Shown piece by piece: positions 35,332 through 42,918 of a stretch of 64,000 nucleotides of DNA. The number at the start of each line of letters is the position of its first letter. Positions within the stretch are counted from its first letter, which is position 1. This DNA comes from Hyaloperonospora brassicae (lineage: Eukaryota > Oomycota > Peronosporomycetes > Peronosporales > Peronosporaceae). Under the pieces are notes generated by a model. It was not told the DNA's origin. It saw nothing but the letters and a program-made list of their open reading frames with translations, and did no database searches. The DNA is taken from assembly GCA_947650285.1 (NCBI GenBank), contig CANTFL010000137.1, forward strand, positions 124,001 through 188,000. The letters run 5' to 3'. The translations under genes and the position numbers were made by a program.

Positions 35332-35718
35332 TGTAACGGGGCAGCCCGTTACATGATATTGTCACTTAAGGAAAGTGACAATAAAGAATATAAGATGGAT
35401 ATTCTTTAAACAATATCACCAAAGTGGTGATATTGAAGGGTCGACCAAAGGGTCTGTTCATTGGTTGATATCGTGATGATATAAACCCACCAATCGCCGC
35501 AAGACGCGCGCAATGAGTGGTGACGAGACGTCACCATACATGCAGTTATATTAGTATAATTGAATTAAGTCAAACGAAGAGACAGTAGTTTAAAGACTTA
35601 ATTTATTAATATAACGGTTCTACTTTTACCCTACCTACGCTTCCTCGCTCGCCACGTGTACGTCCGTCGGGGCACCCAAATCCCTTGCGTAATTTACGCA
35701 AGGGTGTGTCCCGTTACA
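35332..35718 (+). repeat. Element 1 5' LTR, 387 bp
   Basis: TGTAACGGGG...TCCCGTTACA. The first 22 bp form an inverted repeat of the LTR terminus itself (TGTAACGGG / CCCGTTACA, 35332-35340 and 35345-35353). Three more perfect hairpins follow at 35358-35382, 35383-35407 and 35411-35435 (arms 9-10 bp). Differs from the 3' LTR by an A/C in the GATGATATMAACC block, a T/G in the GCGTAAKTTACGC palindrome and a T/C near the end. Confidence 0.97.
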
Positions 35719-35720
35719 CC

Positions 35721-35739
35721 TGGTAGCACTTTGTAGTCC
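35721..35739 (+). promoter_or_regulatory. Primer-binding site for minus-strand synthesis
   Basis: TGGTAGCACTTTGTAGTCC starts two bases after the LTR. It begins with TGG, complementary to a tRNA CCA end, and TGGTAGC fits an acceptor ending GCTACCA as in initiator Met tRNAs of many eukaryotes; the tRNA identity is an inference. Element 2 has CGGTAGCACTTTGTAGTCC at the same place. Confidence 0.7.
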
Positions 35740-35762
35740 TTCCAAGGACCACATCATCCAAC

Positions 35763-39900: not shown

Positions 39901-41812
39901 CCCCAACAAGCGGCCATCGTGGTAGAGAAAAGACTTACCTCACGGTAAGTCGCGACTTTTACTGGCCCCGCCAGTATCAGTTTGTTCGCAAGTACATCCG
40001 TGCTTGCGAAGTATGTCAACGGGTGAAGCCTAGTCCTTCATCCCGTGCGCCATTGCAGCCTCTGCCTGTTCCGACAGAGTGCTGGCAGTCCGTTTCAATG
40101 GACTTCGTCTTCGGGTTTCCCGAAGACGCTCACAAGAATAATGGTATTCTTGTGTTTGTGGACCGATTCAGCAAGATGGTCCATCTTGCTGCTGTCCCTG
40201 AGTCAATCAAGGCTCAAGGTTGTGCTCGTGTCTTTCTAGACACGGTCTTTAGACTCCACGGGTTACCCCGTGAACTCGTATCCGACCGTGACCCTCGGTT
40301 CACGGCGGAATTTTAGCAAACCGTGTTCCGTACTCTCGGAACACGATTGAAGATGTCCACTTCTGACCATCCAGAAACAGATGGTCAGACGGAACGTGCG
40401 AACCGTGTCCTCGAAGAGATTCTTCGAGGATATGTCCACTCGTTTCCGAGTTGGAGCGAATTCCTACCCATGGTGGAATTCGCCATCAATAATTCGGTGC
40501 ATGCTTCAACACAGCACACACCGTTTTACGTGAATGGCCTACGCCATCCACGAGTGCCCACCCTTCTAGAGTGTAACTCTTGGATAAGGGGGGAGGGACT
40601 CGCTCGAGCAAAAACCGTTTTGGCTCTTGCTCATCACGTGTCGACGCAAACGTCGTCACGTATGATGCCGATGTCGATCAAGTCGACATCGATGAAGAAG
40701 ATCATCTCAATAATAGCGAAGACGCTATTATTGATTCGGATGATGATGACGATGCTGGTATATTCAGCATCGCCAACGATTATGTCAGCGAGGAAGAAGA
40801 CAACCTCGCTGAAGAAGAGAGCAATCTCTTAGCAGTGCGCACGAAGCGCACTGCCAGACAAAACAAAGAGTCAGCAGAGAACTTCCTGCTGACTCTAGAA
40901 GCGGTAATCCGTTTCGTTCAGGACTCCATCGCAAATGCGGTGGACCGTCAGAAACGGAACGCAGACAAGAATGGAAGAGCAAATGTTCTTTCATCTAAGG
41001 TTAACGACCTAGTACTACTGTCAACGGTAAACCTACCTGGACATGCAGTCACTAGTGTCGGCAGTAGTAAACTACTGCCGAAATACATTGGGCCATTTCG
41101 AGTGTTGCATCGCAAGGGCAATGCATACACACTCGAATTGCCACGTAGGATGCGCACGCATCCTACGTTTTACGTGGGGAGGCTTAGGTCGTACTGTCAG
41201 TACGAGCCTTCTTCTTCCGATGAAGATAGCCCCCACGTTCAAGAACATCCATCAAGTTCTTGCGTTCGCGCTCCAGACGATCCGTCTGGTCGCGCAGATA
41301 TGATACCTCGGTATTCAACCGAGATATCTCCCCGCGAGCTGTCGCCAGCTCGCCGAATAGGGAGCGGACATCCCGCTCGACCTGAAGCTGCGCCGTGGCA
41401 TAATCGGCGCGATCCCTCGCCCGATCAGCCTCGTGACCCTTGCGGTTCTTCCGCACGGTGTCGGTCAAAGCGTAGCGTCGGTCGCGCTCGTGCTTCAAGT
41501 CATCGCGCAATTCATCGATTGCGCGATCCATCTCGTAAGGGTCGAGATGGTGGGCCTGGGGTTCTGGAGGAGGTCTTTCCTCCTCCACCACATCCTTTGG
41601 TGGATGCTCACGGTGATCAACGCTTTCTAGTGGAGCGTATCTTGAATCACCGTGACGATTCAGGATCAAGGACGAGCTACCTCGTCCAGTGGCGGGGGTA
41701 TGCACCCTCTTGGAACAGCTGGGAGCCCCGCTCTCAGCTGTTGATGGATGTTGAAGGTCTCGTCCGCCAGTATGACGAGACCCATCCGATGAGTCCTGTG
41801 GCCCATCGGTAA
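36903..41812 (+). pseudogene. Element 1 Pol: protease, RT, RNase H, integrase, chromodomain (three lesions)
   Basis: Entered by -1 frameshift from gag. Protease has LVDCGASNNFV (about 37082-37115; DCG in place of the usual D-S/T-G) and ILGLPWL. Reverse transcriptase has the YFDD active site at 38757-38768. RNase H follows (VVCDASDFAIGCAL, about 39213). Integrase has an HHCC zinc region (CHDAPTSGH ... CEVC), the first Asp in SMDFVFG, the second in SDRDPRF, and an IGPF motif near 41090. A chromodomain (FLVERILNHR to SWEPRSQLL) ends the protein at 41812. Lesions: an extra base in protease near 37165, TAG at 40314-40316 where the family has Trp, and a frameshift in the G run near 40595. An acidic insert (24 Asp/Glu of 52) lies at 40664-40819. 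The last 629 bp overlap the antisense gene. Confidence 0.93.
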
Positions 41813-42788
41813 ACACGCGCCCTAGGAGCTTGTAGACGGATTGCAAGTTTGCAATCGCGTCACGCATCTCCTCCGAGAGATGTGCCCTTCCCCAGGGCGA
41901 ATTTAGGGAGTACACATCCCTATTTGCACGCTGCGAGTTGTCAACACAACTCGCACAAGGGTCTCCCCATGTGAGGCAAGGAATGCCTGCCTCACTCGAT
42001 AAACAATGCAACCGGTACCTAGCACCGGTTGGCGTTCGCCGTTCGAACCTGAGGCGTGTTGCCTCAAGTTTCTTGAGCCACCCTTCTCGTCCAAAATTCT
42101 TTACGTTTTGGACGAACGCGTTCCACGCAGCCAAAAGCGATGTTTTGTCACGCTTTTGGTTGCTATTGTACCATCGATGTCTAAGGAAGACATCGAGATA
42201 AAAGTCTTCTTCAGCGCGAAAGTTCTTCGCGCTGGGACTCAAGCCGTGAAGCTCGGTTGCATCGAATAAGGGTATTCGATGGTGTTGGCCTGTCTCGTGA
42301 GACAGGCTATTGATGAGTTGTTCGGGCAAACGCCACGGCTTCAACTCATCACGCTTCACAGTGGTACCCTTGTCGGTACCACGGCTCCCAGATTGACGAC
42401 GGCTCGCGCCATCGTCATCACGCTCGTGCGAAGACGCACGAGCCGGCGGTGGTGAAGAATAGAACTCACCACCCTGATCATCGTCATCACTGCCGAACAG
42501 ACTGTGATGCGAATCACGAGTCCGTTCGTTCGGCAGTGGCCTTGGCGAATACTGAGGCGTCGCCGGTGAGCGAGACGCCTCTGGAGCATTGCCCGAGTCA
42601 GACACGTCTGACTCGCCAGAGTAGATGACCTCCACATCGGGGTCATCGTACGCACGCGGCGTGATACCGCGTGCACCTGCAGCACCTGTTGCTGCAGGCG
42701 AAGAAGGGGCGGCAGACGACGAAGCGTCTGCCGCAGAGGCTTGCACAGCACCAGGCTGTGTGGGTCTTGAGTCACCTCGCATAGACAT
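41184..42788 (-). CDS. Antisense accessory gene of element 1 (coiled-coil, Cys-cluster protein)
   Basis: 534 residues, ATG at 42788, uninterrupted. Residues 1-145 are Ser/Ala/Asp-rich and probably disordered. Residues 147-330 form a conserved-looking domain (DELKPWRLPEQLINSLSHE; FYLDVFLRHRWYNSNQKRD) with a possible zinc-binding cluster C262-x8-C271-x6-C278-x2-C281. Residues 419-516 are an Arg/Glu-rich coiled coil, and the tail has a basic HRKKKAR signal. It lies between pol and the 3' LTR on the opposite strand, and its last third overlaps the integrase tail and chromodomain frame. The same protein, broken by indels, is in element 2. Function unknown. Antisense ORFs at this position are known in some plant Gypsy elements (for example Grande) and in HTLV (HBZ), but I see no sequence relation to them. 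Confidence 0.8.
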   Translation of the reverse strand: MSMRGDSRPTQPGAVQASAADASSSAAPSSPAATGAAGARGITPRAYDDPDVEVIYSGESDVSDSGNAPEASRSPATPQYSPRPLPNERTRDSHHSLFGSDDDDQGGEFYSSPPPARASSHERDDDGASRRQSGSRGTDKGTTVKRDELKPWRLPEQLINSLSHETGQHHRIPLFDATELHGLSPSAKNFRAEEDFYLDVFLRHRWYNSNQKRDKTSLLAAWNAFVQNVKNFGREGWLKKLEATRLRFERRTPTGARYRLHCLSSEAGIPCLTWGDPCASCVDNSQRANRDVYSLNSPWGRAHLSEEMRDAIANLQSVYKLLGRVFTDGPQDSSDGSRHTGGRDLQHPSTAESGAPSCSKRVHTPATGRGSSSLILNRHGDSRYAPLESVDHREHPPKDVVEEERPPPEPQAHHLDPYEMDRAIDELRDDLKHERDRRYALTDTVRKNRKGHEADRARDRADYATAQLQVERDVRSLFGELATARGEISRLNTEVSYLRDQTDRLERERKNLMDVLERGGYLHRKKKARTDSTT

Positions 42789-42906
42789 GTTAACTATGCG
42801 AGGTCAAGCGGAAAGTGAGTGGAACGGACCAAACAAGTGCTCCCTGTCCCAATGGTGGCCAACGGGTGGCCTCCATATTTCGATAGTCACACGGTGACTA
42901 TCAGTT

Positions 42907-42918
42907 AAGGGGGGGTGA
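42907..42918 (+). promoter_or_regulatory. Polypurine tract of element 1
   Basis: AAGGGGGGGTGA lies directly before the 3' LTR, the expected place for the plus-strand primer. The same position in element 2 (AAAGGAGTAGTAA, 63082-63094) is weaker. Confidence 0.85.

What the first reader, a model, noticed from the sequence alone, without database searches (positions are those of the whole stretch)
35332..42918. Retroelement packed with short perfect inverted repeats
The LTR and internal region are full of short hairpins. Within 37386-37946 (561 nt) I find 13: arms (bp) at 37386 (14), 37424 (6), 37503 (11), 37547 (6), 37580 (8), 37652 (9), 37684 (8), 37721 (8), 37776 (9), 37804 (10), 37861 (7), 37888 (11), 37927 (9), all with loops of 0-10 nt. 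Chance would give far less than one with arms of 8 or more. Similar runs occur in the LTR (35332-35435), gag (36213-36237, 36599-36621, 36860-36883) and the antisense zone. Coding constraint does not explain this. Possible roles: packed RNA genome, resistance to RNA silencing, or by-product of strand-switching during reverse transcription.
Basis: seen in the sequence. Interest (0 to 1): 0.93.

Follow-up and report, generated by a model that had tools for sequence, protein, structure and literature searches.

The report
Retrotransposons filled with family-sized RNA hairpins
A jumping gene of a downy-mildew-like microbe carries more than a hundred short self-pairing hairpins along its whole length, and two other jumping-gene groups sampled in the same genome carry hairpins of a different typical size, which looks like a maintained physical mark of each family and has no settled explanation.

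Summary
Element E1 (35332-43305) is a young Ty3/gypsy retrotransposon of an oomycete close to Hyaloperonospora. It holds 104 perfect inverted repeats with arms of 8 bp or more in 8 kb; 6 kb of host genes hold 1, and synonymous shuffles average under 1 per ORF.

Beyond the finding: the four gypsy lineages measured all carry hairpin arrays, in three size classes: 5-6 bp stems with mostly 3-nt loops (F3), about 8 bp (F2 and its 71% identical relative L077), 7-11 bp (E1). F2 and L077 share hairpin positions, with compensatory changes; E1 and F2 share none beyond chance. An intact Copia family has none.

In ten E1 relatives, stems covary. A pair-substitution model conditioned on E1 favours Watson-Crick pairing on transmitted branches (scaled S 2.45; chance-pair controls -0.05 to 0.73). 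Selection beats templated conversion alone clearly, and conversion plus a lower stem mutation rate by only 4 log units. G-T interruptions are no commoner than A-C in E1, unlike ordinary selection on sense RNA.

My preferred mechanism, a dispersed self-recognition or packaging mark read by a protein of the element, is inferred and untested. Strand-switching by-product and silencing shield remain rivals.

The parts
35327..35331 (.). 5-bp target-site duplication (GTTTT), left copy
   Evidence: sequence read
35332..35718 (+). 5' LTR of element E1, itself carrying hairpins from its first base
   Evidence: LTR pair aligned, 99.2% over 387 bp; hairpins
35332..43305 (+). Hairpin array of E1: 127 perfect inverted repeats with arm >=7, loop <=10 in 35332-43310 (104 with arm >=8); loops of the arm >=7 class peak at 4-5 nt
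35763..36917 (+). gag ORF (Retrotrans_gag, Ty3_capsid; zinc knuckle zf-CCHC_3 just below its curated cut-off)
37149..40316 (+). pol ORF: protease, reverse transcriptase, RNase H, integrase zinc finger and start of integrase core (rve, below its curated cut-off); the integrase frame is interrupted in this copy between 40316 and 40580
37386..37946 (+).
40580..41812 (+). Rest of integrase: Tf2-1-like SH3 domain and chromodomain
41184..42788 (-). Antisense ORF of 534 aa, overlapping the chromodomain ORF; conserved in relatives, so probably a gene
42909..42918 (+). Putative polypurine tract (run of G) just before the 3' LTR
   Evidence: sequence read; function inferred
42919..43305 (+). 3' LTR of E1
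43306..43310 (.). 5-bp target-site duplication (GTTTT), right copy
   Evidence: sequence read
56000..63500 (+). Element E2: decayed relative (86% over 5.4 kb) with a reduced array of the same hairpin type (48 with arm >=8 in 56000-63800)

Best explanation
E1 is a young Ty3/gypsy retrotransposon whose whole length carries a dense array of perfect short hairpins. Arrays of this kind occur in the four gypsy lineages measured in this genome, in three size classes, with no sequence motif seen in the one class examined closely (F3). SHOWN: non-randomness; a typical stem and loop size that differs between families; positions kept between the close relatives F2 and L077 but not between E1 and F2; covariation of stems; slower evolution of stems than of loops and flanks. 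INFERRED (favoured, not proven): natural selection on transmitted copies keeps Watson-Crick pairing of the right stem length, while over longer times position and sequence turn over. HYPOTHESIS: the hairpins are dispersed recognition sites read by a nucleic-acid-binding protein of the element itself (Gag/nucleocapsid first candidate), which tells its own genomic nucleic acid from host RNA and from rival families; the typical stem length would then reflect the footprint of each family's reader. The confidence given is for this whole statement. That hairpin pairing is maintained in active lineages, by whatever means, I hold at about 0.8 (raised from 0.75).
For: Hairpins exceed synonymous shuffles in each gypsy lineage tested and not in Copia L068: E1 pol 41 vs 0.95; F2 37 vs 3.2; F3 L067 58 vs 6.7, L066 59 vs 7.6; L077 16 vs 1.8; Copia 1 vs 1.6. 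Size: span 13-15 hairpins 10.6-13.0/kb in three F3 loci (null about 1) but 0.6-2.0/kb in ten loci of other families; arm >=8 hairpins 13/kb in E1, 0.3-0.6/kb in F3. F2 and L077 (70.7% DNA, 74% aa) share 6 of 16 L077 hairpin positions (shifted null 0.39, max 2), some with compensatory pairs; E1 and F2 share 2 of 52 (null 1.7). E1 to E2: 18 pairs changed on both sides and still Watson-Crick against about 3.4 by chance (107 hairpins tested). Ten-taxon model conditioned on E1 (274 pairs, 32 hairpins): S 2.45, lnL -1154.5 vs -1187.7 neutral; slid partners S -0.19 to -0.01; bootstrap 1.95-3.33, six chance-pair controls -0.05 to 0.73. Third-codon rate on internal branches: stems 0.68, non-stem 2.37, loops 3.13. 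Neutral decay of an ancestral array with free rates -1158.3 vs selection with the same rates -1144.0.
Against: No experiment; no protein shown to bind. G-T interruptions are no commoner than A-C (E1 21 vs 20 among 1224 WC pairs; F3 arm 5/loop 3: 7 vs 5, both below null; F3 arm 6: 12 vs 5 with nulls 8.9 and 7.3; F2: 1 vs 6), whereas selection on sense RNA should favour G-U; so an RNA reader must reject G-U, or both strands or DNA matter. F2 and F3 have few one-mismatch hairpins beyond background, as a templating process or very strong selection would give, not S near 2.4. Conversion plus a lower stem mutation rate is only 4.1 log units worse than selection. The chance-pair controls show that the model is misspecified: they gain 2.8-15.0 log units for M4R over R2 with S_term 0.33-1.11 and S_int up to 1.19, against 21.6 and S_int 3.10 for the real pairs; the S_term estimates are not trusted. 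Variation among 30 young copies is weak evidence: shared variants 4 in stems, 31 elsewhere, p 0.024, but p 0.47 relative to singletons, and p 0.36 when stems are taken from any copy. No loop motif was seen, unlike known packaging signals. Only three independent size classes were seen.
Confidence: 0.38

Rival explanations
1. Mutational by-product: during reverse transcription the nascent strand folds back and copies its own arm, turning near-hairpins into perfect ones and repairing mismatches. Stem size would reflect the geometry of each family's reverse transcriptase.
For: Near-strict Watson-Crick pairing without G-T preference; few one-mismatch hairpins beyond background in F2 and F3; near-random placement. 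Template switching can create and maintain hairpins in RNA genes (PMC8794818: outline with abstract and found passages seen). With a lower stem mutation rate it comes within 4.1 log units of selection.
Against: Conversion alone fits much worse (lnL -1178.0 vs -1154.5); the fitted conversion rate falls to a small value with no gain in fit once selection and rates are in the model. Clustered multi-base changes are not enriched for stem gain or loss (8 of 58 sites in clusters vs 35 of 201 single sites). No pair was changed on both sides within one copy among the young E1 copies. Stems evolve slower than flanks, which needs an extra assumption.
Confidence: 0.27
2. Silencing shield: local hairpins in sense and antisense transcripts keep them from annealing into long double-stranded RNA and hide targets from small RNAs; stems are kept shorter than Dicer needs.
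For: Would explain strand symmetry. Three Piwi-domain matches in the genome. E1 carries a probable antisense gene, so antisense transcripts are likely. In Phytophthora infestans small RNAs map to both strands along two Gypsy elements (PMC3522703, passages seen).
Against: The 5-6 bp hairpins of F3 should be weak shields (inference); different sizes per family are not predicted; gaps of 148-190 nt are left open; an intact Copia family has none.
Confidence: 0.15
3. DNA-level function: hairpins or cruciforms in cDNA or integrated DNA serve chromatin, replication or integration, which would explain equal intolerance of G-T and A-C.
For: G-T and A-C equally rare in E1 and similar folding gain on both strands.
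Against: 5-bp stems are not expected to extrude from duplex DNA (general knowledge, not tested); A is commoner than T in loops on the sense strand (pooled p 5e-4), which points to a sense single strand, although F3 and L077 alone do not show it.
Confidence: 0.1
4. Chance, base composition or coding constraint.
For: None found.
Against: Synonymous shuffles, host genes, local shuffles, direct-repeat control and Copia L068 all give near-null counts.
Confidence: 0.01

Closest known systems
Ty3/gypsy (Metaviridae) elements with a chromodomain (chromoviruses)
   Same: LTRs, 5-bp target duplication, gag capsid and zinc knuckle, PR-RT-RH-INT order, SH3 and chromodomain at the integrase end.
   Different: No title or abstract start listed by the ten paper searches (several lists were cut at 12 or 20) described a genome-wide array of perfect hairpins in such an element.
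Dispersed packaging signals of RNA viruses (MS2 and others)
   Same: Many stem-loops spread along the genome, proposed to be read by the virus's own coat protein (PMC6281560, passages seen).
   Different: Those share a coat-protein recognition motif (for MS2 in the apical loop and a bulge); here no loop motif was seen and stem length is the common feature. Binding is not shown here.
Genome-scale ordered RNA structure (GORS)
   Same: Excess folding energy along a coding genome.
   Different: As I recall it, GORS is diffuse and tolerates G-U; here the excess comes with discrete, perfect, size-limited hairpins.
Template-switch mutations that create and maintain hairpins
   Same: Perfect Watson-Crick stems and compensatory changes (PMC8794818).
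   Different: Described there for DNA replication and RNA genes, with 78.5% of two-step compensations at G-U pairs; here G-U is not preferred and the process would have to occur in reverse transcription of certain families.
Antisense ORFs of plant Tat-lineage Ty3/gypsy elements (recalled, no call)
   Same: An extra gene on the opposite strand near the 3' end.
   Different: No sequence comparison was made.

Membership tests
Ty3/gypsy chromovirus | Paired LTRs with target-site duplication | tested here: met
   387-bp LTRs 99.2% identical, GTTTT duplication
Ty3/gypsy chromovirus | gag capsid, then PR-RT-RNase H-integrase in that order | tested here: met
   Pfam hits in order; the integrase core hit in E1 (26.7 bits) is below its curated cut-off of 32.6, its frame being interrupted
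Ty3/gypsy chromovirus | Chromodomain after integrase | tested here: met
   PF00385 5e-13 in E1; no chromodomain hit in the F2 and F3 pieces, whose frames run off the cut ends
Ty3/gypsy chromovirus | tRNA primer-binding site | not tested
   Sequence after the 5' LTR was printed but not matched to host tRNAs
Dispersed packaging signals | Many stem-loops spread over the genome | tested here: met
Dispersed packaging signals | Shared recognition motif in the loops | tested here: not met
   By base composition only: loops mildly A-rich, the 31 arm-5/loop-3 hairpins of F3 show no loop consensus; no motif search was run on the longer E1 loops
Dispersed packaging signals | Binding by the cognate coat protein or Gag | not testable with these tools
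   Needs protein-RNA binding assays
Genome-scale ordered RNA structure | Lower folding energy than codon-preserving shuffles along the genome | tested here: met
   Mean z -7.8 (E1 pol), -7.9 (E1 gag), -2.2 (first 3 kb of the F2 frame), -2.5 (first 3 kb of the F3 frame), host 0.1
Template-switch hairpins | Multi-base templated change in a single event | tested here: not met
   No enrichment of clustered changes for stem gain or loss; ten taxa, 2 kb only
Template-switch hairpins | Two-sided stem changes beyond what selection explains | tested here: inconclusive
   Simultaneous double rate adds 1.05 log units to selection; conversion plus lower stem rate is 4.1 units worse than selection

The most novel reading that the evidence does not exclude
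Stem length is a self-recognition code: each retrotransposon family in one genome marks its whole genomic RNA or cDNA with hairpins of its own size, largely independent of sequence and, over long times, of position, read by its own Gag or other protein, so that rival families sharing a cell do not package or mobilise one another.
Probability: 0.27. Interest if true: 0.96.

Novelty: new variant of a known kind. Interest (0 to 1): 0.86.

Why it matters
If the hairpins are selected, a protein-coding mobile element is under a second, genome-wide constraint that lies on its proteins as well: residues coded by E1 stems match F2 in 42.6% of 310 positions against 56.8% of 722 elsewhere, so stems either sit where the protein is free to vary or have changed it. 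How LTR retrotransposons pick their own RNA out of the cell, and how related families avoid mobilising each other, are open questions that would become testable with short synthetic hairpins and purified Gag. If instead the hairpins come from fold-back copying, they are a visible footprint of the geometry of each reverse transcriptase and a natural record of template switching in retroelements. Either answer would be new for LTR elements as far as the titles and abstract starts listed by the searches here show.

Tried and rejected
Chance, composition, coding constraint: rejected. Regular spacing: not found. Gap CV is close to random for E1 and E2 at arm >=7 and >=8; E1 at arm >=6 (1.14 vs 0.99+-0.08) and F3 (1.15 vs 0.99+-0.08) are slightly clumped; F2 is slightly more even than random at arm >=6 and >=7 (0.81 vs 0.98+-0.11, 0.79 vs 0.96+-0.13) but not at arm >=8. 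Clustered template-switch footprints: no enrichment. Neutral decay of an ancestral array: worse than selection. Sequence motif in the 31 arm-5/loop-3 hairpins of F3: none seen beyond C on the 5' side of the loop (18 of 31) and G at three other stem positions (13-14 of 31). Relatives outside this genome: two scans of viral contigs found none by protein; the metagenome and prokaryote genome collections were not scanned.

Corrections to my own results: the window copy was counted twice (reference and L001), which inflated shared variants outside stems; p 0.0004 is withdrawn and one search replaces it. In one search some fits did not leave their starting point; replace them. In one search F3 was counted with arms of 7 or more only and looked hairpin-poor; searches show that it has shorter ones. 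L042 and L065 are parts of the same F2 copy. In one search, 107 of 127 E1 hairpins were tested; 20 were dropped for poor local alignment with E2.
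Full report
WHAT IT IS. The stretch 35332-43305 is one LTR retrotransposon with both ends, called E1 here: LTRs of 387 bp (35332-35718, 42919-43305; 99.2% identical) flanked by the 5-bp duplication GTTTT, gag (capsid, zinc knuckle), pol (protease, RT, RNase H, integrase) and an integrase end with SH3 and chromodomain. In this copy the integrase frame is interrupted between 40316 and 40580. 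A 2-kb pol query finds 40 places at 99-100% identity, this one included, in the same 100.6-Mb genome (only 40 candidates were scored, so this is a lower bound). The best named match of the neighbouring host helicase is Hyaloperonospora arabidopsidis (82%, 1396 bits); Phytophthora and other downy mildews follow at 68-83% with lower scores, so the host is an oomycete of that group. A second element, E2 (about 56000-63500), is an 86% identical decayed relative.

Perfect inverted repeats with arm >=8 and loop <=10 number 104 in E1 (13/kb) and 1 in 6 kb of host genes. Sixty codon-preserving shuffles give means of 0.37, 0.88 and 0.42 for the three ORFs where 12, 41 and 14 are seen. Short direct repeats are few (2). 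The LTRs and the region after pol also carry them. Loops peak at 4-5 nt. Folding energy is far below synonymous shuffles on both strands (pol z -7.8 sense, -6.3 antisense; host 0.1 and -0.5).

SIZE DIFFERS BETWEEN FAMILIES. Other families in the genome were sampled through an integrase-end domain search (2522 candidates, 150 scored, 30 loci cut), a Copia search (4 loci cut) and regions taken out. Four gypsy lineages could be measured. E1: arms 7-11, loops most often 4-6. F2 (L065; 19 distinct copies linked at 95% or more among the loci): arms 7-10, spans centred on 19-21. L077: arms 7-9, none of 10 or more in 2.7 kb. F3 (L066, L067; open frames of 1606 and 1566 aa): arms 5-6, loops most often 1-4, modal span 13 (45 of 131), with 36 hairpins of arm 5 and loop 3 where 2.6 are expected, and only 12 against 5.9 expected at arm 7 or more. 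Against 40 synonymous shuffles: E1 pol 41 vs 0.95, F2 37 vs 3.2, F3 58 vs 6.7 and 59 vs 7.6, L077 16 vs 1.8. The F3 type stands at 10.6-13.0/kb in three F3 loci and 0.6-2.0/kb in ten loci of other families (null 0.8-1.1), the E1 type at 0.3-0.6/kb in F3. Copia L068 (1421-aa frame) has neither; Copia L062 shows a smaller excess, 17 with arm 7-10 where 3.5 are expected, not pursued.

RELATIONSHIP. RT-RNase H proteins of F2 and F3 are 69 and 67% identical to E1's, yet E1 and F2 share no more hairpin positions than chance (2 of 52, null 1.7). L077 is the closest of these to F2 (70.7% DNA, 74% aa over 896 positions); the two share 6 of the 16 L077 positions (shifted null 0.39, maximum 2), and shared stems show pairs replaced on both sides. 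L077 against E1 gives 2 of 11 (null 0.74) and against F3 3 of 15 (null 1.76). So there are three independent size classes; positions persist over moderate divergence and are replaced over longer times.

HOW STEMS EVOLVE. Between E1 and E2, 107 alignable E1 hairpins gave 776 unchanged pairs, 144 changed on one side, 18 on both sides and still Watson-Crick (about 3.4 expected), 8 on both sides and broken, and 2 gapped. With a looser filter 21 hairpins carry such a change, 20 of them at one pair only; 5 of the 21 stems are otherwise intact, the others also have broken pairs, as expected of a decayed E2. Stems differ less than flanks in gag (0.211 vs 0.360), pol (0.111 vs 0.154), the zone after pol (0.077 vs 0.190) and the 3' LTR (0.208 vs 0.322); the integrase end shows little difference (0.068 vs 0.086) and the 5' LTR, with 32 alignable stem sites, none (0.312 vs 0.286). 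In a 2-kb pol segment of ten relatives I fitted a 16-state pair model conditioned on E1, with codon-position rates taken from non-stem sites. Preference for Watson-Crick pairs on internal branches gave S 2.45 and lnL -1154.5, against -1187.7 neutral, -1159.1 for slower stems without pairing (2 rates), and -1177.2 for conversion alone (-1178.0 in the rooted version). With both stem rates free, selection gives -1144.0, an ancestral array decaying neutrally -1158.3 and conversion -1148.1; adding conversion to selection gives no gain. Sliding the partner by 1-3 bases gives S near zero. Six samples of 274 chance pairs that are Watson-Crick in E1 gave S between -0.05 and 0.73, and the bootstrap over hairpins gave 1.95-3.33. 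The same controls show that the model is imperfect (spurious S_term of 0.33-1.11, S_int up to 1.19 in the fullest model, gains of 2.8-15.0 log units against 21.6 for the real pairs), so likelihood differences are less certain than they look. Counting shared against singleton differences in the same alignment gave weaker support (p 0.02-0.12 for four stem definitions, 1e-4 for a fifth, stems of L069, which is biased). Selection is favoured, not proven.

WHAT DOES NOT FIT NEATLY. In a structured RNA a G-U pair is nearly harmless and an A-C mismatch is not (general knowledge). In E1, interruptions are 21 G-T and 20 A-C among 1224 Watson-Crick pairs. In F3 neither exceeds background at arm 5/loop 3; at arm 6 G-T is 12 against 8.9 expected and A-C 5 against 7.3; in F2 A-C (6) exceeds G-T (1). 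The phylogenetic model allows G-U up to about half the benefit of a Watson-Crick pair and A-C about a quarter, so the strand test is not absolute, but the balance in E1 argues against plain selection on sense RNA. A is commoner than T in sense-strand loops of E1 (p 0.006) and marginally F2 (p 0.052), not in F3 or L077, which points the other way. F2 and F3 have few one-mismatch hairpins beyond background, which suggests very strong selection or a templating process. Variation among 30 young copies gives only weak support (the stronger figure was an error of mine, see Tried and rejected).

MECHANISM. A silencing shield should not care about family; a strand-switch by-product could, through RT geometry; a recognition mark read by the element's own protein would. 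I prefer the last because stems evolve as if constrained and because size, not sequence, is the common trait, but no binding was shown. The nearest precedent is packaging signals dispersed along RNA virus genomes (PMC6281560, passages seen), which differ in sharing a recognition motif. The nearest precedent for the rival is template switching that makes and keeps hairpins (PMC8794818, outline with abstract and found passages seen).

LITERATURE. Ten searches of the open PubMed Central library were judged by listed titles and abstract starts only, several lists being cut; none described hairpin arrays of this kind in LTR retrotransposons. Subscription papers and preprints are mostly not held, so this is no proof of novelty.

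Noticed in passing
window 41184-42788 (-): The 534-aa antisense ORF behaves like a gene: outside pol, antisense codon position 3 differs most between E1 and E2 (0.256 vs 0.152 and 0.124, non-stem sites), and 11 database proteins match, among them a 559-aa one at 48% and two from Peronospora matthiolae. It has no Pfam match at E 0.001.
   Followed up: partly
L042:1703-3097 (-), L034:96-1511 (+): F2 and F3 also carry long antisense ORFs (465 and 472 aa) near the 3' end, with no convincing sequence similarity to that of E1 or to each other.
   Followed up: partly
L062, L063, L064: One Copia family shows a modest excess of arm-8 hairpins (1.3-1.5/kb) where another intact one (L068) has none.
   Followed up: no
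window 37149-40313, E1 pol: Hairpin stems prefer phases in which wobble bases face non-wobble bases (wobble-to-wobble 6 of 41), and stem-coded residues are less conserved between families.
   Followed up: partly
E1 copies, 5-kb segment (L002-L030 and the window copy): Singleton variants are commoner in loops (31 in 408 sites) than in flanks (130 in 3171) or stems (37 in 1420), which may mean that loops mutate faster because the hairpins form.
   Followed up: no
L037, L041: F2 copies at 90-92% identity to the main F2 group keep about a third of the hairpin density (8 against about 24 with arm >=8 per 3.2 kb), as expected of decaying copies.
   Followed up: partly
window 12000-14000: Highest count of F3-type hairpins among the 32 two-kb windows (8 where about 2 are expected; several others have 4-5), possibly a remnant of an F3-like element.
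   Followed up: no
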